From Clostridiaceae bacterium (lineage in GTDB: Bacteria; Bacillota; Clostridia; DSM-8532), in assembly GCA_025361665.1 (NCBI GenBank), contig JANYKF010000375.1, positions 1 to 14,135 on the forward strand: a DNA stretch of 14,135 nucleotides. The letters are read 5' to 3'. Positions 1 to 11,920 of this stretch are shown here, one piece after another (the first letter of the stretch is position 1; the number at the start of each line of letters is the position of its first letter). The notes beneath the pieces are model-generated. The model was not told the DNA's origin and searched no databases. It worked only from the letters and a program-made list of their open reading frames with translations. The translations under genes and the position numbers were made by a program.

Positions 1-184
1 GCAGGCGGTGAAAGCATATGAAAAGCTGACTGTGAAAGCCGGCCTTGAAGGAGACTATGCCTCGGCCCTGTCCGCCTTGCTGACGCATCCCCTCATCGGC
101 GACTATCACCGGGCCAAACCGCTGCTTGACGAGATGCTGGAAGCGAACCGGGCCTACCTGCCCCAATTCAGGATTTGGGATTGA
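1..184 (+). CDS. C-terminal end of a glycoside hydrolase family 4 enzyme (6-phospho-glycosidase type), partial
   Basis: Only the last 60 codons are in the window; the gene enters from the left and stops with TGA at 182-184. The readable tail contains AYEKLTVKAG, HPLIGDYHRAKPLLDEM and ANRAYLPQF. This is the typical end of NAD- and metal-dependent family 4 glycosidases of the LicH/CelF type, which hydrolyse 6-phospho-beta-glucosides after PTS uptake. The catalytic and NAD-binding parts are outside the window, so the substrate (phospho-beta-glucoside, alpha-glucoside or galacturonide) is not decided here. The last codons and the stop lie inside the first copy of a 33-bp tandem repeat. An amino-sugar kinase gene follows on the same strand 97 bp downstream, which suggests a sugar-use operon. 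The family call is from recognition of the C-terminal motif only. Confidence 0.72.
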   Translation, partial: QAVKAYEKLTVKAGLEGDYASALSALLTHPLIGDYHRAKPLLDEMLEANRAYLPQFRIWD

Positions 185-257
185 TCGTCGGCGACATCTC
201 ATAGGATTTGGGATTGACCGTCAGCGACATCTCATAGGATTTGGGATCGACCGTCAC
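171..257. repeat. 33-bp tandem repeat, about 2.6 copies, over a stop codon
   Basis: Copies run 171-203, 204-236 and, partial, 237-257. Each begins GGATTTGGGAT and the full ones end GACATCTCATA. Copies 1 and 2 differ at two positions; copy 3 carries further changes and decays after about 21 bp. The TGA stop of the upstream glycosidase lies in copy 1, so the duplicated segment is the 3' end of that gene. The repeat ends 24 bp before the kinase start codon. There is no spacer between copies, so it is not a CRISPR array. Confidence 0.9.
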
Positions 258-2150: not shown

Positions 2151-3122
2151 TCAAGCCTTCTCTGCAACCCGGATTGTCAGCCAGTCATCCGTTTCATCCG
2201 TCCCCATCAAATCTGCCACGTGCAATTTCGCAGCACCTGAAAACCCTGGCATCTGCTGCAGTCCCGGCAAGGTCAGCTGCTCCGGCGCCAATCCGGCAAA
2301 CGGCACGGGCTCACACCAGATGCGTTCGCCATCCACCCAGACAATGCTGCTGGTCTGATCGCGCCTGGCCACCTCCAGGTGAAACCCTTCTCCCGGGATC
2401 AGATTTTTCTCGGCCAGCGCGTTGGCCGCGGTCTGCCAGGCCAATTCGGGAAAGTTGTTTTCATGGCTCAAATGACCGAGAAGGACGCATCGGGCGCCGT
2501 TCGCCACCAGATGCGCCACGACCTTTCCCGCCATATCGTTGCACAGATGCCCGTGATCCCCCAAAATGCGCTGTTTCAGGGGCCAGGGATACCGGCCCAT
2601 CTTCAGCATGCCGATATCATGATTGGATTCCAGGAGCAGGATATCGCTGCCTTCAAGATTGCGCAGCAAGGCCCTGTTCATGTGCCCCAGATCCGTCGCC
2701 ACCGTGATTTTTCTGCCTTGCATATGGAAAGAATAGCCGACCGGTTCCGCCGCATCATGCGGAATGGGGAACGGTTCGATTTCCATCCCGCCGATGTGGA
2801 AGCGCTCCCCCGGGACAAACCGGCATTGCTGACCCGGCGCCAGCTTTCCGGGGAAAGTGCCCATGGCCTCCCAGGTTCCCCCGCTCGCATAAATGGGCAC
2901 CTTGTACCGGCGAGCCAATACCCCGATGCCCATCGTATGATCACTGTGTTCGTGCGTGACCAGGATGGCCCGCAAATCCGAAGGATGCTCGCCCACGGCG
3001 GAGAGCGACGCTTCGATGCGTTTTCCGGAAAGGCCCGCATCCAGGAGTATCCGCGTTTCACCATCGGAAAGAAAGATGCAGTTCCCGCTCGAACCGCTGA
3101 AGAGGCTCACCAGTTTAATCAT
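2151..3122 (-). CDS. walJ: WalJ (YycJ)-type metallo-beta-lactamase-fold hydrolase
   Basis: A 323-residue cytoplasmic metallo-beta-lactamase-fold protein of the YycJ/WalJ group, a presumed metal-dependent nuclease linked in Bacilli to the WalRK pathway and to coordination of replication with wall growth. The metal-binding motif HEHSDH is at residues 57-62, after LLDAG (27-31); further likely ligands are in TDLGH, ESNHD and the late GHLSHENN. The start MIKLVSLFSGSSGNC is at 3122; its ATG overlaps the murA stop region (ATGATTAA, 8 nt), which implies translational coupling, and no strong ribosome binding site is visible. The family is usually about 265 residues; here about 66 extra residues (258-323) follow the core, rich in Trp, Pro and acidic residues and without a motif that I recognise. 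rlmH lies downstream; the HtrA protease gene usual at this place is missing. Confidence 0.9.
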   Translation of the reverse strand: MIKLVSLFSGSSGNCIFLSDGETRILLDAGLSGKRIEASLSAVGEHPSDLRAILVTHEHSDHTMGIGVLARRYKVPIYASGGTWEAMGTFPGKLAPGQQCRFVPGERFHIGGMEIEPFPIPHDAAEPVGYSFHMQGRKITVATDLGHMNRALLRNLEGSDILLLESNHDIGMLKMGRYPWPLKQRILGDHGHLCNDMAGKVVAHLVANGARCVLLGHLSHENNFPELAWQTAANALAEKNLIPGEGFHLEVARRDQTSSIVWVDGERIWCEPVPFAGLAPEQLTLPGLQQMPGFSGAAKLHVADLMGTDETDDWLTIRVAEKA

Positions 3123-4401
3123 TGCTGTCTTCGCAAAAGGTTCTTGTTTCCCTGCGGATGTCCGCTCCGAGTGCTGTGAGTTTCTCGACCAGATTCTCAT
3201 ATCCGCGATCGATGTACTGGACATTCAGGATTTCCGTTTCCCCCTCCGCCACTAGGCCCGCCAGCACGCACGCAGCACCCGCCCGCAGGTCGAGTGCCTT
3301 GATGGTGCAGCCGGAAAGCGGTCTTCCGCCTTCAATCATGGCGGTGCGCCCGTTCACCTGGACCTCCGCCCCCATGTGCCGCAGTTCTTCCATGTATTTG
3401 AAGCGATTGTCATATATGCCCTCGGTTATCGTGGAAACGCCTGCCGCCAGCATGAGCAGCACGGCGACCGGAGGCTGCAAATCAGTGGGAAAGCCCGGAT
3501 ACGGCAATGTCTTGATGTTCGCCTTCATGAACGGTCCGTTGCCGGGCCGGATGTGGATGCAGTCATCGCGTTCCTCCACCTGCACATTGATCTCCAGGAG
3601 TTTGGCCGTGAGGGATTCCATGTGCTTGGGGATGACGTTCTTCACCATCACGTTGCCCCTGGTGGCTGCCGCTGCCACCATGAAGGTTCCGGCCTCAATC
3701 TGATCTGGAATGATGCTGTGCACCACGCCGCCGTTCATGGCCCGGACGCCGCGGACCTTGATGATGTCCGTGCCCGCTCCCTTGATATCCGCGCCGAGTG
3801 CGTTTAGAAAGTTCGCGATATCGACGATGTGGGGTTCTTTTGCCGCATTTTCAATCGTGGTGAGTCCTTCCGCGCGCACGGCCGCCAACATGATGTTGAT
3901 GGTGGCGCCAACGCTGACGACATCCAGATAAACCGGCGCACCCACGAGATGTTCCGCTTTCAGGTGGATGCAGCCGTGATCGATGACCACGGTCGCGCCC
4001 AGTGCTTCAAACCCCTTGAAATGCTGGTCGATGGGCCTGTTTCCGAAGTCGCAGCCGCCGGGAAAGGTGATCACTGCCTCGTGGAATCGACCGAGCAAGG
4101 CCCCCATGAGATAGTAGGATGCCCGGAGACGATGCATTTCGTCCCCGGTCGCATGGAAGGTGGAAACCCCGCTGGTGTCCACCCGCAGCGTATCGTGCCC
4201 CACCGTTTGAAAAACGACGCCGAGGGAGGCCATGATGTTTTTCATCCGCGTAATGTCGAGGATGTCCGGCACGTTTTCAATGGTACAGACCTCACCGATG
4301 AGGAGGGCGGCAGGCAGCACGCCCAGAGCGGCATTCTTCGCGCCGCTGATGGTCACTTCGCCCATCAGTGGCCTTTGACCGCGTATGATGAGTTTATCCA
4401 C
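3115..4401 (-). CDS. murA: UDP-N-acetylglucosamine 1-carboxyvinyltransferase MurA
   Basis: A 428-residue cytoplasmic enzyme that transfers enolpyruvate from phosphoenolpyruvate to UDP-GlcNAc, the first committed step of peptidoglycan synthesis. Visible landmarks are ISGAKNAAL (18-26, Lys22), FPGGCDFGNRP (113-123) with the catalytic Cys117 that fosfomycin alkylates, FPTDLQP (304-310, general base Asp308), and IDRGYENLVEKL (397-408). With the Cys kept, the enzyme should be fosfomycin-sensitive. I chose a GTG start at 4401 because it gives the family N terminus VDKLIIRG and has AGGTG 6 nt upstream; a GTG three codons earlier and an ATG at 4431 are possible. A TATAAT lies about 95 bp upstream, so the gene probably has its own promoter as well as read-through from walRK. 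It overlaps walJ by 8 nt. Confidence 0.96.
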   Translation of the reverse strand: MDKLIIRGQRPLMGEVTISGAKNAALGVLPAALLIGEVCTIENVPDILDITRMKNIMASLGVVFQTVGHDTLRVDTSGVSTFHATGDEMHRLRASYYLMGALLGRFHEAVITFPGGCDFGNRPIDQHFKGFEALGATVVIDHGCIHLKAEHLVGAPVYLDVVSVGATINIMLAAVRAEGLTTIENAAKEPHIVDIANFLNALGADIKGAGTDIIKVRGVRAMNGGVVHSIIPDQIEAGTFMVAAAATRGNVMVKNVIPKHMESLTAKLLEINVQVEERDDCIHIRPGNGPFMKANIKTLPYPGFPTDLQPPVAVLLMLAAGVSTITEGIYDNRFKYMEELRHMGAEVQVNGRTAMIEGGRPLSGCTIKALDLRAGAACVLAGLVAEGETEILNVQYIDRGYENLVEKLTALGADIRRETRTFCEDSND

Positions 4402-4494
4402 TCTCTTCACCTGCCTTCCAGCATCCTGCATGGCGTCCGGGAAAATGACCGTTGTGCAGTTCAAGGTTGCCGGACGACAAAGCACTCAACATAG

Positions 4495-4582: not shown

Positions 4583-5425
4583 TCAGTCCGGGAGCCGGAT
4601 GCCGGTATAGGCATCCAGCCTTATCTCCTGCCCGCCCTCGAGGCGCACGCGCCACACGGGACTGAAGTAAAGTTCCCCCGCATCCGCCTGACCCCAGCCA
4701 TATTCAACCGCCGTGACGGACAGGGGCCCCTTCAGGGAGGACAGCATCACCGCCTGCAGCGCGGACAGCACCTCACCGGAACTGCCGTCCGCCGGCGCGA
4801 TCATTTGCCGGATGGGAAACAGGGAGAACACGATCCGGGCAATGCCGGAATTGCGAAGCAGAAATAAAACCCGGTTGTCGAAAAGCTTTCCATTTTTATA
4901 AGACTGGACGTAGGTGAGGAGGATTCCCTCCCCTGTTTCCCTGACATCGTCACGGATGAATTCATATGAACCCAGCCCAATCCCTTTGAGCAGGTTTCGG
5001 ATTTCACGATCCCTTTTGTCTTCGGTCGAAGTGTCCAGCTGATAACCCGCCGCAAGGTCTTCATAGACCGTTTCCGCGCTTCCCGTCTCCGTGCCGGATG
5101 CTTCCGTCAGCGTCCTGCTCCCCATGCGATAGGATCGGATTCCCTTGCTGTCTGTTTCTGCTGAGGCACCGGGCAGCAGCCTTTCGATCAATTTGTCCAT
5201 TGGCGGGGAGCTGTTGTCAAAACGAATCATTCCGGCTGTCGCCGGACCCTGGGGCCATGTTCCCGCCAGCGTGATGCCTCGTGATGCCAGGATGTCGGTT
5301 GCGTGGGCCACATATTCCTGCTGGCCCCCGCCGGCCGCAGTGCCGTAATACAGCGAGCCGCCAAGAAAAAGATTCAATAGGATGAGGAGAAGGATGAACA
5401 GCGTCTTCACATGTCTCCAATCCAT
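4583..5425 (-). CDS. yycI: YycI-like membrane regulator of WalK
   Basis: A 280-residue protein with a short cytoplasmic N terminus (MDWRHVKT), one transmembrane helix at about residues 8-27 and an extracytoplasmic domain. In B. subtilis YycI and YycH form a complex with the WalK kinase through their membrane helices and tune its activity; in Staphylococcus aureus they activate it. MDWRHVKTLFI is the family's usual opening, and residues such as GYGWGQADAGELYFSPVWRV near the C terminus fit the YycI fold. It starts one base after the yycH stop (TGACATG), which points to coupled translation and fixed stoichiometry. Identification rests on position, length, topology and the N-terminal motif; sequence conservation in this family is low. 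Confidence 0.88.
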   Translation of the reverse strand: MDWRHVKTLFILLLILLNLFLGGSLYYGTAAGGGQQEYVAHATDILASRGITLAGTWPQGPATAGMIRFDNSSPPMDKLIERLLPGASAETDSKGIRSYRMGSRTLTEASGTETGSAETVYEDLAAGYQLDTSTEDKRDREIRNLLKGIGLGSYEFIRDDVRETGEGILLTYVQSYKNGKLFDNRVLFLLRNSGIARIVFSLFPIRQMIAPADGSSGEVLSALQAVMLSSLKGPLSVTAVEYGWGQADAGELYFSPVWRVRLEGGQEIRLDAYTGIRLPD

Positions 5426-5426
5426 G

Positions 5427-6911
5427 TCAAGGCACCGCCTTTCTCATCGGCAGCGTATAGACGACGCCGTTTGCCTGCAGGATCCATTGCGGGGATAGTT
5501 GCGCGCCGCTTTCCTTTTCGGGGATCAGATACCCGTTCCGGATGATGGACAGTTCCTGTCCCTTTTCCTGCAGAATGGGAAACATCTTGATGGCATCCGT
5601 GTAAAAATCAACAAAAAATACATTCCACCGCTCACTGGCAACGGGTGTAAACTTCCGGATGCACCAGTCGCAGGCAATGACCCGATCGGCGACGGCCGTG
5701 ATGGTGACCGGGGCTCCCGCATTTCCGGTTATGGCATTCTTTGCCAGCACCGTGCACCCGTCAACCCGATATGCAAAGGAGAAAGTAAAGGCCATCATCT
5801 TGCCGGAGGGAACCGCAGTGCCGGTTGCGGAAGCGCTTACGCCGTCCAGGATCAAACCGGTATCTCCGAGAAGCCATCGCCGGTCCTCCAAAAAAGCCAT
5901 CGCCTGACGGAACGCGCTTTCCATGTCTGTACCTTCCGTTCCGGCTCCGGGCAGGTAACGATAGGAAAAATTTCCGGTCATATCGAGCTTGAACGTGTTT
6001 TCGGTATCGGAGAATGTGATTTCCCCGGTGGTTTCATCCAGGCGGGTCAGCAGGCTGTCCTTCCGGTTGAGCAGAAGGCTCTCCTGAAGCGCTTGCAGAT
6101 TGTCCATGGCGAAGGTCGCGGAAATGGCTTCGGGTAACGCGGCTTCATAGACAGGCAGCGTGACCAGGTCGGATTCATCTGTCGAAACGAGGAGATCCTG
6201 CCGTGCGGAGGGTACGAACAACGTTTCACCCATCAGGGAATAAAGGTGATTTTCACCGACGGCAAGGGCCCGCTGATCCATCACATACCAGCTTTTCGGC
6301 AGCGCCTCCGCCGGCAGGGCCACCATGAAGCGATAAACCCCTTGCGCCGACAAAACATACAGGGTGTTGATGTTGGTATTGACATTCTCCGAGGGCACGA
6401 TGGCGATCTTTTCAATATCCGTTATCGCTGAAGCAAAAGAAATTCCCTTTTTACCCGATGAGGTTCCGGTCAGCCACGGCAGAATTTCCACGGGAATCGG
6501 GTGCTCGAACTCGAAAAGGACCGTGCGGCGGGACGCAAGCAACTGACCCCACGAAGACCGCTGCAATTGCTTGTCCGGTTTTTCAGTGACCAGCCGCGGC
6601 AGGTAGTGCGTTGTCAAATCAAGCCAGGCGGTTCTCCAGGAAGCACCCAGCGGATCCAGCACCCACCTCGCGGACTGCTCGTCGGAAACCACGATTCGGT
6701 TTGGCGTCACGTATCCGATTTTTTTGACGGACAGCTGTTTTTCATCCACAACCGTGTCATCGGCATTGGCTTGCAGGAGGGTGGAGACAAAACGAAAGGG
6801 ATGTCCCTGGACCTGAAGGTTCCAGTGAATCCCCACTTGCAGAAGGCTTGTCAACATCAGGCCGATCAGCGCGCCTGTTTTCAGTTTTTCCCTCAACCCG
6901 GCCTCCATCAT
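5427..6911 (-). CDS. yycH: YycH-like membrane regulator of WalK
   Basis: A 494-residue protein with a single N-terminal membrane anchor (about residues 12-30) and a large extracytoplasmic part; YycH proteins are about 440-490 residues. With YycI it forms a heterodimer that contacts the WalK transmembrane region. The opening (REKLKTGALIGLMLTSLLQ) and the phrase IHWNLQ soon after the helix fit the family. The start at 6911 has AGGCGG 7 nt upstream; a second ATG follows directly and could also be used. It begins 11 bp after the stop of the unknown secreted gene and ends 1 bp before yycI, so these three genes are probably co-transcribed. Low sequence conservation means that the call depends partly on the gene order. 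Confidence 0.87.
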   Translation of the reverse strand: MMEAGLREKLKTGALIGLMLTSLLQVGIHWNLQVQGHPFRFVSTLLQANADDTVVDEKQLSVKKIGYVTPNRIVVSDEQSARWVLDPLGASWRTAWLDLTTHYLPRLVTEKPDKQLQRSSWGQLLASRRTVLFEFEHPIPVEILPWLTGTSSGKKGISFASAITDIEKIAIVPSENVNTNINTLYVLSAQGVYRFMVALPAEALPKSWYVMDQRALAVGENHLYSLMGETLFVPSARQDLLVSTDESDLVTLPVYEAALPEAISATFAMDNLQALQESLLLNRKDSLLTRLDETTGEITFSDTENTFKLDMTGNFSYRYLPGAGTEGTDMESAFRQAMAFLEDRRWLLGDTGLILDGVSASATGTAVPSGKMMAFTFSFAYRVDGCTVLAKNAITGNAGAPVTITAVADRVIACDWCIRKFTPVASERWNVFFVDFYTDAIKMFPILQEKGQELSIIRNGYLIPEKESGAQLSPQWILQANGVVYTLPMRKAVP

Positions 6912-6922
6912 GCGGATGCCGC

Positions 6923-7582
6923 CTATTTCAACATTGGGATAAAGGTATTTCTCATCACTTCCGTGATGCCGATCCGCAGGCGGTCCATGACGGTATAGGT
7001 TCGGGCCACAACCTTGAGATCCGTGATCTGAAGGTTCTTCTTCAGGTCCAGCTTGCTCATCTGCGACCTGTGAAAGGCGATGATGCGGAGTTCATTGACC
7101 TTGTCCGTGCCAAGGTTGTCCAGTTTGATTTTCGCGTACAGCAGTTTCGGGGTCTCGATGAGGTTGGTATCCTTGTTCACCTTTGCATCGACGGTTTCAA
7201 GCGGAACGAACATGCCGTCCCGTTTGATGTACAGCAACACGATGATGGTGTCGTCCGCTTCCGCCGGATTATCGCCTTCCGCAGCATCGATCTGTTGAAC
7301 GCTGCCGGTCAGGACATAGCGGAGAGGGTCGTTTGCCTTCAGGTCGCGGCTGGCGGCAATGGAGAGCAAATATGGGTCGTCGGAATTGATGTCTTGATCA
7401 AAAAAGAGACCGGCATGTTTCTCGGCAAAAAATTCAACCCCGCCAGGGGACGTGATATCCGATGGAACTTTGATTTCAATACTGACTTTTTTGGCCGGAT
7501 CCGTGTCCGCCGCAAGCGCTGTCACCGTGCTGCCCATCAGGACAAGCAACAGCACCGACAGGAACACAAAACGCTTCGTCAT
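6923..7582 (-). CDS. Secreted protein of unknown function inserted between walK and yycH
   Basis: A 219-residue protein that I do not recognise. Residues 1-24 form a classical signal peptide: MTKR, a hydrophobic core FVFLSVLLLVLMG, and an ALA cleavage site before ADTDPAKK. The mature part is about 195 residues, hydrophilic, without cysteines or further membrane helices, with beta-rich stretches (VSIEIKVPSD, TIIVLLYIKRDGMFVPLE, LLYAKIKLDNLG); it could be an adhesion-like or immunoglobulin-like fold, but no motif proves this. ATG at 7585 and 7582 are both possible; GGGAG is 7 nt before the second. It sits where Bacilli normally have yycH directly after walK. A TATAAT and a WalR-box-like repeat lie in the 113-bp gap upstream, so it may be a WalR target. 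A role in sensing or feedback on the Wal pathway is only inferred from location and export. Confidence 0.85.
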   Translation of the reverse strand: MTKRFVFLSVLLLVLMGSTVTALAADTDPAKKVSIEIKVPSDITSPGGVEFFAEKHAGLFFDQDINSDDPYLLSIAASRDLKANDPLRYVLTGSVQQIDAAEGDNPAEADDTIIVLLYIKRDGMFVPLETVDAKVNKDTNLIETPKLLYAKIKLDNLGTDKVNELRIIAFHRSQMSKLDLKKNLQITDLKVVARTYTVMDRLRIGITEVMRNTFIPMLK

Positions 7583-7666
7583 CATGATTCTCCCAACTCG
7601 CTGCAGCAACCGTGCTGCCTGTCTATAAAATGATGGCCGGACTATGCCCAGCACCCGAACAATTCA

Positions 7667-7672
7667 ATTATA
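7667..7672 (-). promoter_or_regulatory. -10 element of a promoter for the secreted gene and yycHI
   Basis: A perfect TATAAT reads from 7672 to 7667 on the minus strand, about 85 bp before the start of the secreted gene. There is no TTGACA-like hexamer 16-18 bp upstream; that space is taken by a WalR-box-like direct repeat ending 11 nt before the -10. This arrangement is usual for promoters that need an OmpR/PhoB-family activator. The promoter and its dependence are predictions. Confidence 0.55.
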
Positions 7673-7683
7673 CCGCAAAAGCC

Positions 7684-7700
7684 ATTACAAAACTGTTACA
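7684..7700 (-). promoter_or_regulatory. WalR-box-like direct repeat over the walK stop codon
   Basis: On the minus strand TGTAAC, five bases (AGTTT), then TGTAAT: an exact match to the published WalR (YycF) box TGTWAH-N5-TGTWAH. The first half-site includes the TAA stop of walK (7698-7696). It replaces the -35 region of the downstream TATAAT, with 11 nt between box and -10. This suggests direct regulation, more likely activation, of the secreted gene and yycHI by WalR. Confidence 0.65.
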
Positions 7701-9558
7701 CCCCATTTACTTCTTGTTGACCCTTGACAAATTCGGAGATAGGCAATAGGACTGTAATCACCGATCCCTCATTCACGCGGGACTGTGCATGAATGCTTCC
7801 GCCGTGCAGCAGGGCGATTTCCTTTGCGATGGCAAGTCCGAGTCCGGTGCCGCCCATCTGTCTGGACCTGGCTTTGTCGACCCTGTAAAAGCGTTCAAAA
7901 ATGCGGCTCAGATCCTTTTCGGGAATTCCGATGCCCGTATCGTGAACACGGATCGCCAGTTTTCCCTCCTGAGGTGTCAGAACAACCCGTATCTGGCCGC
8001 CGGCGGGCGTATATTTCACTGCATTGCCCACAACATTCAGCAGCAGCTGCTCAAGGCGATCCCGATCCCCCTGCACAATCAATGGATTCGGCAACCCTTC
8101 CATCCGCTCGCAAAACAAGTTCTGCCTCTTGTCGGCAGCCTGGTGGCGCAGCCGCTCGATGCAGGCTTTGACCAGTTCTTCGGGTTCAATGGGTGCCATG
8201 GAAAGTTTCAGTCCGCTGTCATGCTGGGAGAGCAGCAGGAGATCCTTGACGAGGCGGACCATGCGGTCCGTTTCTTCATTGATGACTTTGAGAAACTTTT
8301 CCGTAATCTTCGTATCTTCCATCGCGCCATCCAGCAACGTTTCCGTATAGCTTTTCACAGATGTCAGGGGTGTGCGCAGTTCATGGGAAACATTGGCGAC
8401 GAACTCGCGCCGCATGTTTTCAAGCCTGTGCTCCTCCGTGATGTCCTGCAGCACGATGATAACCCCGCCAAGCTGTCCGGACTCATCGCTGAATGCGGCG
8501 AACTGAAGACGGAGGAAACGCTCCAGCACGGGGACCGTCACCGGTTTCTGGGGGGAAGGTTCCTGCTTCAGCACCGTTTCCAGCGTAGTTTCGACGCCCA
8601 GTGCCTGCATCAGGCTGTCGAACCGGATGTTCCTATCGCTCAGACGGCCGCTCCGCTTCCTGGCAAAGGTTCCCAGCATGCCGGTGGCGGCAGGGTTGAT
8701 GTGAATGGCCAGTCCATTGCGATCAAAGGCAAGCACGCCATCGGACATATGGTTGATGACCGTTTCCACCTTGTTCTTTTCTGCGGCAATTTCCATGATC
8801 ATGCTTTTGAGTCTCGTGGACATGAAATTGAACGTGGACGTCAATTTTCCGATTTCGTCCATCGATTTGACTTCCAGCAGCTGTCCAAATTCGCCCGCCG
8901 CAATGCTTTCCGCCTTGTGCATGATGTCGGTGATGGGACGTGTGATCGTCCGCGAAAAGGCAAGGCCGAGGCCGAGGGCCGCCACGAGGGCCAGGAGGAT
9001 GCTGGTCAGAATCATGCCGTTGAACTTGTCGAGAACGCCAAGGGCCTTCGTGCGGCTGTATTTGAAGAAAAGAACGACATCACCGCCCTGCAGCGGCTGC
9101 AGTCGGACATAATCATAAAAATCGCCCAGCCCTTGTATGTTGGTCCGCGTATGAACCGGTTGAAGGCCTTCCGGTTCTCCGTCCAGCACGGCCATCAGGT
9201 TGACGGATTTGTAGATGGCTGTTTTGAATTGCGCCTGACGGACGACATCCTGGTAAACCGGATCGGATGAATAATAGATGTCTCCGGTCGCCTTGTCCAG
9301 CATGGTGAAGCTTTTGTATTCGCCAAGAATCAGCCCGGTGATGACGGCATCTGTCGTAAGCCTTTTCTTGAGGGTTTCCTCGGTTGCCGTATCCTTGATG
9401 CCGAGGCTGTCGTAATTCCGGGCGATATCATCTTTGAATGAGTCGTAAAAACTCCGCTCCACTTGAAAGTTCAGAAAGACCCAGACCACGGTCATCAGGA
9501 CAAAAGTGATCAAGGACAATATGAAGATGAGCCGCCATTGGATCGTGCGGAAAAACAT
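7696..9558 (-). CDS. walK: Sensor histidine kinase WalK (YycG/VicK)
   Basis: A 620-residue membrane kinase that phosphorylates WalR and controls peptidoglycan hydrolase expression. Order of parts: TM1 about 9-30; extracytoplasmic sensor domain 31-181; TM2 about 182-202; HAMP about 203-255; cytoplasmic PAS about 262-375; HisKA with the phospho-acceptor His392 in VANVSHELRTPLTS; HATPase_c with N-box LLLNVVGNAVKYT (Asn512), G1 DTGIGI (540-545), F-box around FERFYRVD and G2 GGTGLGLAI (569-577). The length and domain order match WalK of Bacilli. Of the four zinc ligands reported for the S. aureus WalK PAS domain, three seem kept (His270, Asp273, Glu375), while the His of VLHDVTE is Gln371 here. 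GGGGGT precedes the ATG, 24 bp after the walR stop, so the two are co-transcribed. Confidence 0.97.
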   Translation of the reverse strand: MFFRTIQWRLIFILSLITFVLMTVVWVFLNFQVERSFYDSFKDDIARNYDSLGIKDTATEETLKKRLTTDAVITGLILGEYKSFTMLDKATGDIYYSSDPVYQDVVRQAQFKTAIYKSVNLMAVLDGEPEGLQPVHTRTNIQGLGDFYDYVRLQPLQGGDVVLFFKYSRTKALGVLDKFNGMILTSILLALVAALGLGLAFSRTITRPITDIMHKAESIAAGEFGQLLEVKSMDEIGKLTSTFNFMSTRLKSMIMEIAAEKNKVETVINHMSDGVLAFDRNGLAIHINPAATGMLGTFARKRSGRLSDRNIRFDSLMQALGVETTLETVLKQEPSPQKPVTVPVLERFLRLQFAAFSDESGQLGGVIIVLQDITEEHRLENMRREFVANVSHELRTPLTSVKSYTETLLDGAMEDTKITEKFLKVINEETDRMVRLVKDLLLLSQHDSGLKLSMAPIEPEELVKACIERLRHQAADKRQNLFCERMEGLPNPLIVQGDRDRLEQLLLNVVGNAVKYTPAGGQIRVVLTPQEGKLAIRVHDTGIGIPEKDLSRIFERFYRVDKARSRQMGGTGLGLAIAKEIALLHGGSIHAQSRVNEGSVITVLLPISEFVKGQQEVNGV

Positions 9559-9582: not shown

Positions 9583-10278
9583 CTACAGATTCGGATTGAA
9601 GTAGTAGCCGACACCACGCTTGGTGAGGACGTATTCGGGATGGCTCGGTTCACGTTCCAGCTTCTCCCGGAGGCGGCGTACCGTGACATCCACCGTGCGG
9701 ACATCTCCGTAGTATTCATATCCCCAAACCTTTTCCAGCAGGTTTTCCCGCGTGAAAATCTGGCCTTTCTGCATCATGAGGAAACGAACCAGCTCAAACT
9801 CACGCAGCGTGAGTTCGAGAACCTGACCATCCCGGCGAACTTCATACTGAACGGAATCAACTTCCAGATCTCCTGCCTTCATTGGCGGGGTTCCAGGCTT
9901 TTTCACCGCTTCATCGGTTAGCCGGCGCAGGTTGGCCTTCACACGGGCCATCAATTCCCGGGGACTGAAAGGCTTGGTAATGTAGTCATCCGCACCGAGT
10001 TCCAAACCCAGCACCTTGTCGACTTCCTCTTCGCGGGCAGTCAGCATCAGGATGGGAACCTGGGAATTCTGGCGGATCCGCCTGCAAACCGTGAATCCGT
10101 CGATTTCCGGCAGCATCAGGTCCAGCAGGATGAGGTCAGGCTTCTCGCGCTCTGCCATCTCAACCCCAGCGAGTCCGTCATAGGCTTCCAATGTATCGAA
10201 TCCTTCTTTCTGAAGATTGAACTTAAGGATGTCCACGATATTTTTTTCATCTTCCACGATGAGAATCCGTCGTTTCAT
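9583..10278 (-). CDS. walR: Response regulator WalR (YycF/VicR)
   Basis: A 231-residue OmpR/PhoB-family response regulator, partner of WalK and usually essential in Bacilli. The receiver domain holds the acidic pair Glu9-Asp10, the phosphorylation site Asp53 in LILLDLMLP, Thr80 (ILMLTARE) and Lys102 (ITKPFSP). The winged-helix DNA-binding domain (about 130-231) contains LTLREFELVRFLM, the recognition-helix region DVRTVDVTVRRLREKLE, and ends TKRGVGYYFNPNL. The start at 10278 has GGGAGGT 5-6 nt upstream; an upstream in-frame ATG at 10323 is rejected because the promoter -10 overlaps it. First gene of the minus-strand wal cluster. Targets should carry TGTWAH-N5-TGTWAH boxes, one of which is seen just after walK. 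Confidence 0.97.
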   Translation of the reverse strand: MKRRILIVEDEKNIVDILKFNLQKEGFDTLEAYDGLAGVEMAEREKPDLILLDLMLPEIDGFTVCRRIRQNSQVPILMLTAREEEVDKVLGLELGADDYITKPFSPRELMARVKANLRRLTDEAVKKPGTPPMKAGDLEVDSVQYEVRRDGQVLELTLREFELVRFLMMQKGQIFTRENLLEKVWGYEYYGDVRTVDVTVRRLREKLEREPSHPEYVLTKRGVGYYFNPNL

Positions 10279-11564: not shown

Positions 11565-11834
11565 ATGACGGACCCAAGCCCTGTCACAACCGTTCTTGCC
11601 GGGTTTCCCGATCCCATCGCGCCGTTTCCCGCCTGGTCCTTGTTCCTGCTGTTCATCCTGCTGCTCGCACAGGGCCTGTTTCTTTTTCTTGACGGCAGGA
11701 GGAATGGCATTCGATTGTACTGGGTGTGGGCGCTCTGGAGCCTGACCACCTGTCCGTTGCCTTCTGTCCTGTACTGGTTTCTTGTCCGCAGAAAACACAT
11801 TCGAAAGCATCTGCCCCCTCCATCGGCTCAATGA
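11565..11834 (+). CDS. Two-helix membrane protein, YxlD-like
   Basis: An 89-residue protein with helices at about 23-42 (WSLFLLFILLLAQGLFLFLD) and 51-74 (LYWVWALWSLTTCPLPSVLYWF), then a basic tail (RRKHIRKH). The start at 11565 is set by a very good AGGAGGTG at 11549-11556, 8 nt upstream; the same frame is open further left, but without a ribosome binding site. It lies third in the SigY-like operon, where B. subtilis has YxlD, a negative regulator of SigY. The second helix, with its YWVWALWSL and PSVLYWFLVRR pattern, recalls PLDc_N-like two-helix domains. The stop codon is inside the first copy of a 30-bp tandem repeat, and ATGA there would let a ribosome restart on a tiny reading frame. The 132 bp before it contain no gene. 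Confidence 0.72.
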   Translation: MTDPSPVTTVLAGFPDPIAPFPAWSLFLLFILLLAQGLFLFLDGRRNGIRLYWVWALWSLTTCPLPSVLYWFLVRRKHIRKHLPPPSAQ

Positions 11835-11911
11835 TTCCTAACTGGAAGATGATCGGCTCAATGATTCCTAACTGAAAGATGATCGGCTCAATGATTCCTA
11901 ACTGAAAGATG
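11822..11911. repeat. 30-bp tandem repeat, 3 copies, over the yxlD-like stop codon
   Basis: Copies are 11822-11851, 11852-11881 and 11882-11911. Copies 2 and 3 are identical and copy 1 differs at one base (GGAAG for GAAAG). Each contains CGGCTCAATGATTCCTAACT. The stop of the upstream gene is the TGA at 11832-11834 in copy 1. The near identity suggests recent expansion. The array is in the middle of an operon, between two genes of the same strand. Confidence 0.93.
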
Positions 11912-11920
11912 ATTTGGTGT

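What the first reader, a model, noticed from the sequence alone, without database searches (positions are those of the whole stretch)
7667..7700. A perfect WalR box contains the walK stop codon and replaces the -35 of a promoter for an unknown secreted gene
The minus strand shows TGTAAC-N5-TGTAAT (7700-7684), an exact fit to the known WalR box TGTWAH-N5-TGTWAH. It lies 11 nt before a perfect TATAAT that lacks a -35. In PhoB/OmpR-family activation, a box 10-11 nt upstream of the -10 substitutes for the -35. The walK TAA stop is part of the first half-site, so this control element is built into the coding end. It would let WalR drive the secreted protein plus YycH/YycI separately from walRK, a feedback loop inside the locus that I do not know from B. 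subtilis.
Basis: partly seen in the sequence, partly recalled or inferred. Interest (0 to 1): 0.75.

Follow-up and report, generated by a model that had tools for sequence, protein, structure and literature searches.

The report
WalR-type promoter for wal accessory genes
At the end of the gene for a bacterial cell-wall sensor lies a repeated DNA switch that probably lets the sensor's own partner protein turn on the sensor's helper genes, and the same switch guards those helper genes in many Clostridia, even in some where they have moved away from the sensor.

Summary
It is the only such site in the window (0.01 expected) and in the 2.6-Mb draft genome. The walK stop TAA (7698-7696) is the third half-site's TAA. 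Of 24 relatives chosen by the downstream protein alone, 23 keep the site at that place. In 128 genomes of the class it follows walK in 34, and in 13 more (8 families) it precedes gene X away from walK. Where gene X is absent and YycH follows walK directly, the site is absent (6 genomes, 2 families). Best explanation: an internal, WalR-activated promoter for X-YycH-YycI, giving feedback on WalK separately from walRK. WalR binding, activation and the sign of the loop are inferred. Gene X is an unnamed secreted Ig-like protein. Papers seen report wal operons as not autoregulated, so this is a new variant of a known kind. The stop-codon overlap is largely a by-product: TAA every 11 bp stops all three frames.

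The parts
7718..7721 (-). half-site 1 (GTCA), 11 bp upstream of half-site 2; lies in walK coding sequence
   Evidence: sequence; same register in G001 (L002)
7707..7710 (-). half-site 2 (GTAA), in walK coding sequence
   Evidence: sequence
7695..7700 (-). half-site 3 (TGTAAC), holds the walK stop TAA 7698-7696
7684..7689 (-). half-site 4 (TGTAAT), 11 nt before the -10
7667..7672 (-). -10 element TATAAT; no -35 at spacers 15-19
   Evidence: kept in 24 of 25 loci found by gene-X homology, the window's own included
7589..7594 (-). probable ribosome-binding site GGGAGA of gene X
   Evidence: sequence
6923..7582 (-). gene X (start ATG 7582 or 7585): secreted protein of about 219 aa, signal peptide, Ig-like beta-sandwich, C-terminal helix; unnamed family
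   Evidence: no Pfam or NCBIfam hit; match in 25 of 41 genomes, own included; model pLDDT 81.5, Ig/FnIII-like matches
5427..6911 (-). YycH-like membrane protein
   Evidence: by position, and homologues follow X in relatives; no Pfam YycH hit itself
4583..5425 (-). YycI-like membrane protein
   Evidence: Pfam YycI E 3.4e-5, 24 bits, below the 29.7-bit cut-off
7696..9558 (-). walK sensor kinase; its last codons are read from the array
   Evidence: best NCBIfam model HK_WalK, below its cut-off
9583..10278 (-). walR response regulator
   Evidence: best NCBIfam model YycF 326.5 bits, cut-off 340; DNA-binding domain closest to solved VicR/WalR-type domains

Best explanation
It is an internal promoter of the wal locus. 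Phosphorylated WalR binds a tandem array of four 11-bp-spaced half-sites that overlaps the 3' end of walK and covers about -62 to -24. It replaces the missing -35 in the manner of PhoB-type activators and recruits RNA polymerase to the TATAAT at 7672-7667, starting transcription near 7660 of an operon that encodes a secreted Ig-like protein (X), YycH and YycI. WalK activity thereby sets the amount of its own extracellular and membrane partners without changing walRK: a feedback loop. Shown by sequence: the array, the -10, their spacing, their conservation, and their travel with X. Inferred: that WalR is the binder, that it activates, that X acts in WalK signalling, and the sign of the loop (negative if YycH/YycI inhibit WalK as in B. 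subtilis, positive if they activate it as reported for S. aureus).
For: Exact WalR consensus, unique in window and genome. Kept in 23 of 24 relatives selected by X homology, spacing 10-11 nt, -10 with 5-6 of 6 matches. Short pattern over 41 genomes: 39 places against 3 in the reversed control. In 128 class genomes, 34 have it after walK and 13 before X elsewhere, together 47 of the 63 with a match; the two samples overlap in some genomes. YycI and YycH beside relocated X confirmed by profile comparison for 5 and 8 of them, E 2.6e-37 and 2.9e-36. Array and X are absent together in 6 genomes of 2 families. WalR DNA-binding domain: the five best solved matches score 117-125 bits (next 86); three are named VicR, walR or yycF, two only DNA-binding response regulator; the recognition helix equals that of yycF 2d1v. 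Other TGTAAY-N5-TGTAAY sites in relatives lie beside genes that look like cell-wall genes, e.g. mraZ in at least 4 of 25 family genomes of 3 genera (simple, post hoc chance estimate 4e-11). No array in 30 pstS loci (best -3.1). E. coli pho box substitutes the -35 (PMC4971064, passage).
Against: No binding, footprint or transcript data. The box without the -10 is not enriched in the window's own genome. Of 22 genomes checked, 14 have the exact WalR helix DVTVRRLREK; G124 has array and X but yielded only a paralogue, and G056 only a truncated hit. Paralogues with a similar helix exist in 8 of them. In G076 and G042 the WalR and the kinase hit are not neighbours, so the kinase there may not be WalK. 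Similar arrays stand before a pstS-like gene in a Nitrospiraceae genome and before other genes (21 of 118 loci are not shown beside walK; two of these, L207 and L242, are contig edges with X-like genes), so the motif class is shared. The regulon association has no full control set. In S. aureus, WalR sites between -35 and -10 repress (PMC10746227, passage).
Confidence: 0.8

Rival explanations
1. The array is bound by another OmpR-family regulator (PhoP, or the WalR paralogue with helix VDVH(I/V)RRLREK), so the operon answers to another signal.
For: Paralogues with a near-identical helix were seen in 8 of 22 genomes; G124 has the array but only a paralogue was found; a similar array precedes a pstS-like gene in a Nitrospiraceae genome (L212).
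Against: No array in 30 pstS loci of this class, both strands (best -3.1 against 13 or more for wal arrays); G021 pstS instead has TTAACA repeats in the other orientation. The array is tied to walK or X in 47 of 63 genomes. WalR itself shares the recognition helix of yycF 2d1v.
Confidence: 0.12
2. WalR binds here but represses: the array overlaps the RNA polymerase site and shuts the internal promoter when WalR is active.
For: S. aureus WalR represses when bound between or downstream of -35 and -10 (PMC10746227, passage).
Against: There is no -35 for unaided RNA polymerase in the window; the last half-site ends 10-11 nt before the -10, as in pho-box activation (PMC4971064, passage).
Confidence: 0.1
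3. Chance: the repeats are an accident of walK's 3' coding sequence or of AT-rich intergenic DNA.
For: Part of the array is coding in the window.
Against: 0.01 expected in the window; kept across families, in G001 about 110 nt after the walK stop in non-coding DNA, and where walK is elsewhere.
Confidence: 0.01

Closest known systems
WalR (YycF/VicR) operators of Bacilli, TGTWAH-N5-TGTWAH
   Same: same half-site, same 11-bp period, same recognition helix as yycF 2d1v; consensus as used in PMC9210968 (passage)
   Different: four half-sites instead of two; sits inside the wal locus, overlapping the kinase stop; passages seen state wal operons are not autoregulated (PMC9210968, PMC4801191)
PhoB pho-box class of promoter
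   Same: direct repeats near the -10 that replace the -35 (PMC4971064, passage); 11-bp period recalled
   Different: the half-site and the attributed regulator are WalR-type; no array at 30 pstS loci here
S. aureus walRKHI operon
   Same: walR-walK-walH-walI order
   Different: in S. aureus one transcript from two promoters before walR with no WalR site there (PMC4801191, passages); here a secreted gene X and a dedicated promoter precede YycH
C. difficile walA (lipoprotein of the wal operon)
   Same: an exported accessory protein coded in a clostridial wal operon (PMC9210968, passages)
   Different: walA is the first gene, before walR, with a predicted beta-propeller; X follows walK and is Ig-like; no homology test was run between them

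Membership tests
WalR operator | two TGTWAH half-sites with 5-bp spacer | tested here: met
   exact, once in the window
WalR operator | bound by WalR protein | not testable with these tools
   needs gel shift, footprint or ChIP
WalRK two-component system | response regulator with the WalR DNA-binding domain | tested here: met
   five best solved matches 117-125 bits, among them VicR, walR and yycF; next 86
WalRK two-component system | scores above the curated NCBIfam cut-offs for YycF and WalK | tested here: not met
   YycF best but 326.5 of 340 bits; HK_WalK best but 473.9 of 725
WalRK two-component system | locus order walR-walK-(X)-yycH-yycI-yycJ | tested here: met
   yycH by position; in the window murA stands between yycI and the yycJ-like gene
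PhoB/OmpR-type activated promoter | no -35; last half-site 10-11 nt before a -10 | tested here: met
   (the -35 test on the window only)
PhoB/OmpR-type activated promoter | transcription depends on the phosphorylated regulator | not testable with these tools
   needs start-site mapping and a reporter
Pho regulon box | same element at pst genes of these genomes | tested here: not met
   best score -3.1 in 30 pstS loci scanned whole on both strands, against 15.9 for the window and 23.4 or more for the 68 arrays of the matrix

The most novel reading that the evidence does not exclude
Across Clostridia, WalR directly switches on a dedicated feedback operon whose first product is a new family of secreted Ig-like proteins (X) that joins the WalK-YycH-YycI sensory complex or binds the wall and tunes WalK. 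The regulatory wire is kept in trans even when the operon moves away from walRK, and is absent together with X.
Probability: 0.45. Interest if true: 0.8.

Novelty: new variant of a known kind. Interest (0 to 1): 0.7.

Why it matters
WalRK is the essential cell-wall regulator of most Firmicutes, and the published work seen here treats wal operons as not autoregulated. A conserved WalR-type promoter inside the locus, tied to an unstudied secreted protein, would be a hard-wired homeostatic loop. It points to a missing partner of WalK and makes the open question of what YycH/YycI and WalK sense testable in culturable Clostridia.

Full report
What is in the window. The minus strand carries walR, walK, a gene of no named family (X), yycH-like, yycI-like, murA and a yycJ-like gene. 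Between walK and X lies the reported element. Its coordinates are exact, and it is rarer than chance would give: 0.01 expected in the window, once in the draft genome. Reading upstream in the same register shows two further half-sites, GTCA at 7721-7718 and GTAA at 7710-7707. The element is therefore a four-half-site array with 11-bp period, followed by 11 nt and TATAAT. No -35 exists at spacers 15-19.

Conservation, unbiased by the motif. Loci were first picked by homology of X (25 of 41 genomes, own included). In 24 of these 25 loci, that is 23 of 24 relatives, the box and -10 are present, with 10 or 11 nt between them (best site 16-18 of 18, second best in the same gap 13-16). The exception, L017, is cut by its contig end; that genome (G016) has the array after walK on another contig. 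In 21 of the 24 the half-sites read GTAA-TTAA-GTAA-GTAA; in the window and its genus mate G001 they read GTCA-GTAA-GTAA-GTAA; in L011 the contig end cuts the first two. In G001 walK stops about 110 nt before the array, so the same DNA is coding in the window and non-coding next door: the selection is on the DNA.

Conservation, by the motif. The short pattern (two half-sites plus -10) hits 33 of 41 genomes, 39 places in all against 3 for the reversed control, usually once per genome and at the wal site. The full array was then sought in a collection of one genome for each of 84,980 species. In 97 of the 118 the array lies within 300 nt downstream of walK on the same strand; the spacer to the -10 is 10 nt in 79 and 11 nt in 18 (the pattern allowed 9-11). 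Of the other 21, L207 and L242 are cut at the contig edge but are followed by an X-like gene. The remaining 19 are not shown to be wal loci: among them L204 (another kinase 387 nt off), L212 (before a pstS-like gene), and L187, L190, L201 (before genes that look like exopolyphosphatase, glutamine synthetase and ammonium transporter; these names are my reading, from no call). Named hosts with the array after walK include Acetivibrio, Thermoclostridium, Pseudobacteroides, Herbivorax, Thermoanaerobacterium, Alkaliphilus, Natronincola, Fusibacter and Acetoanaerobium. Downstream genes, where the held DNA reaches, are a small exported protein, then YycH and YycI; Pfam supports YycH or YycI in five such loci tested, some below the cut-off.

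Natural experiments. In 128 genomes sampled from the class, 63 have the short pattern and 82 a WalK-type hit. The array follows walK within 300 nt in 34, of 15 families, six of them from the window's own family (with G036). I fetched 16 genomes whose array was not beside walK. In 13, of 8 families, it stands directly before an X gene; YycH follows in 12, and in G121 the contig ends after X. No walK lies in the flanks held (243 nt in G110, 400 nt or more in the others) except in G121, where walK is 2.8 kb upstream with another gene between. The kinase hit is on another contig in nine, 40 kb away on the other strand in G065, and not found in G124 and G056. WalR stands beside that kinase in the seven of these genomes where both were placed and adjacent (G084, G070, G051, G110, G065, G121, G058); in G076 and G042 it does not. 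Profile comparison supports YycI in five and YycH in eight of the 13. The other three arrays were G097, before an amidase with a stalk domain, G087 and G071. Of the 16 array genomes outside the 47, G028, G032 and G040 were looked at, G071, G087 and G097, and G094, where the array precedes X-YycH at a contig start; nine were not examined.

Presence and absence. Of 52 genomes with a kinase hit at E 1e-100 or better, 14 had neither arrangement. Five of them have X with a slightly different array (G078, G104, G045, G146, G094; scores 13-23) and G047 shows a partial array at a contig end. Six have a YycH-like gene directly after walK, no X and no array (G117, G090, G141, G063 of one family, G072, G035 of another; YycH judged by place, length and N-terminus). 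G102 has unrelated genes after walK, and G027 has an X-like gene with a degenerate array, score 2. Presence of the array thus follows presence of X, with G027 the doubtful case. In G004, 4.5 kb separate walK from the array, which stays beside X.

Who binds. The window's WalR DNA-binding domain is closest to five solved domains, three of them named VicR, walR and yycF, with the recognition helix identical to yycF 2d1v (that 2d1v is from B. subtilis is recalled). Among 22 genomes checked, 14 keep DVTVRRLREK exactly, six carry variants, G124 yielded only a paralogue and G056 a truncated hit. G035, with an altered helix, also lacks the array; G058, with another change, has it. Other TGTAAY-N5-TGTAAY sites in relatives (40 loci fetched, not all that one search listed) often lie beside what look like cell-wall genes: mraZ in four of 25 family genomes (three genera, G001 included; box 211-274 nt away, other strand), M23 endopeptidase, amidases, NlpC/P60 with SLH, LysM with phosphatase, D-Ala-D-Ala carboxypeptidase. 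These names are my reading of the sequences; I did not run a domain search on that set, nor a control set. The mraZ coincidence has a chance of about 4e-11 under a simple estimate made after seeing it. Thirty pstS loci hold no array on either strand. So WalR is the best candidate, not proven.

How it would work. In E. coli the pho box stands close to the -10 and substitutes the -35 (PMC4971064, passage). The geometry here is alike, so activation is the likely mode. S. aureus WalR activates from upstream of -35 and represses from between -35 and -10 or downstream (PMC10746227, passage). YycH and YycI inhibit WalK in B. subtilis (PMC7299342, passages) and are reported as activators in S. aureus (PMC5013275 and PMC7355866, title and abstract start only). 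The sign of the loop is therefore open.

The stop codon. In 32 of 69 kinase genes the stop lies inside the array, and in 28 it is a half-site TAA: the first in 23, the second in 5 (on the 80 loci). The window's place, the third half-site, was not seen among them. An 11-bp period is 2 modulo 3, so TAA repeats at that period close all three reading frames. A walK frame that reaches the array must end in it. The overlap is therefore a common by-product rather than a special device, though it does place the operator at the kinase's coding end.

Gene X. It has no Pfam or NCBIfam match. The model (28 sequences, mean pLDDT 81.5) shows a signal helix, an Ig-like sandwich and a C-terminal helix. Solved-structure matches are generic Ig/FnIII sandwiches. 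Counterparts in other families are mostly shorter, and 3 of 10 tested touch Glucodextran_B below threshold; profile comparison of two groups gave probability 71, E 3.8e-5, over 54 columns. Homology of all these X proteins is likely but not proven.

Compared with print. [quoted passage not shown] difficile or other Firmicutes, and PMC4801191 found no WalR site before S. aureus walRKHI (passages). That agrees with the window: no array precedes walR. The feedback here is on the accessory genes only. I found no paper on such a promoter in the searches listed under Tried and rejected.

Noticed in passing
window 3115-4485 (-); L149, L160, L169, L174 and others: murA follows yycI in many wal loci with the array (14 murA-like against 12 yycJ-like and 3 other of 29 where the next gene was seen; two of the other 3 also look like murA), so WalR might also drive the first committed step of wall synthesis.
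   Followed up: partly
L062 (G015) 1908, L070 (G010): A second array with -10 stands before a large repetitive lipoprotein gene in two genomes of one genus.
   Followed up: partly
L057 (G040:C3:25406); same pattern in G074 and G127: An array with -10 precedes a 941-aa gene that looks like FtsK (my reading) in G040; the pattern recurs nearly letter for letter in two relatives.
   Followed up: no
L212, L201, L190: In other phyla the same four-half-site array precedes genes that look like pstS, an ammonium transporter and glutamine synthetase (my reading), hinting at a shared operator grammar of OmpR-family regulators.
   Followed up: no
L145, L177, L244, L248: In four Clostridia genomes the full array precedes one kind of 360-380-aa gene (MSIK.EIKKEGIEV...), away from walK; unknown.
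   Followed up: no
L327, L330, L332-L337: A WalR paralogue with helix VDVH(I/V)RRLREK and TKWGVGYY occurs in 8 of 22 genomes checked; its function was not examined.
   Followed up: no
window 170-256, 1317-1410, 1937-1988, 11822-11913: Four short tandem repeat arrays (periods 33, 37, 26, 30) at or near gene edges.
   Followed up: no
G035 (L304, L324): WalR's recognition helix is altered (DVTVARIREK) in a genome that lacks X and the array.
   Followed up: no
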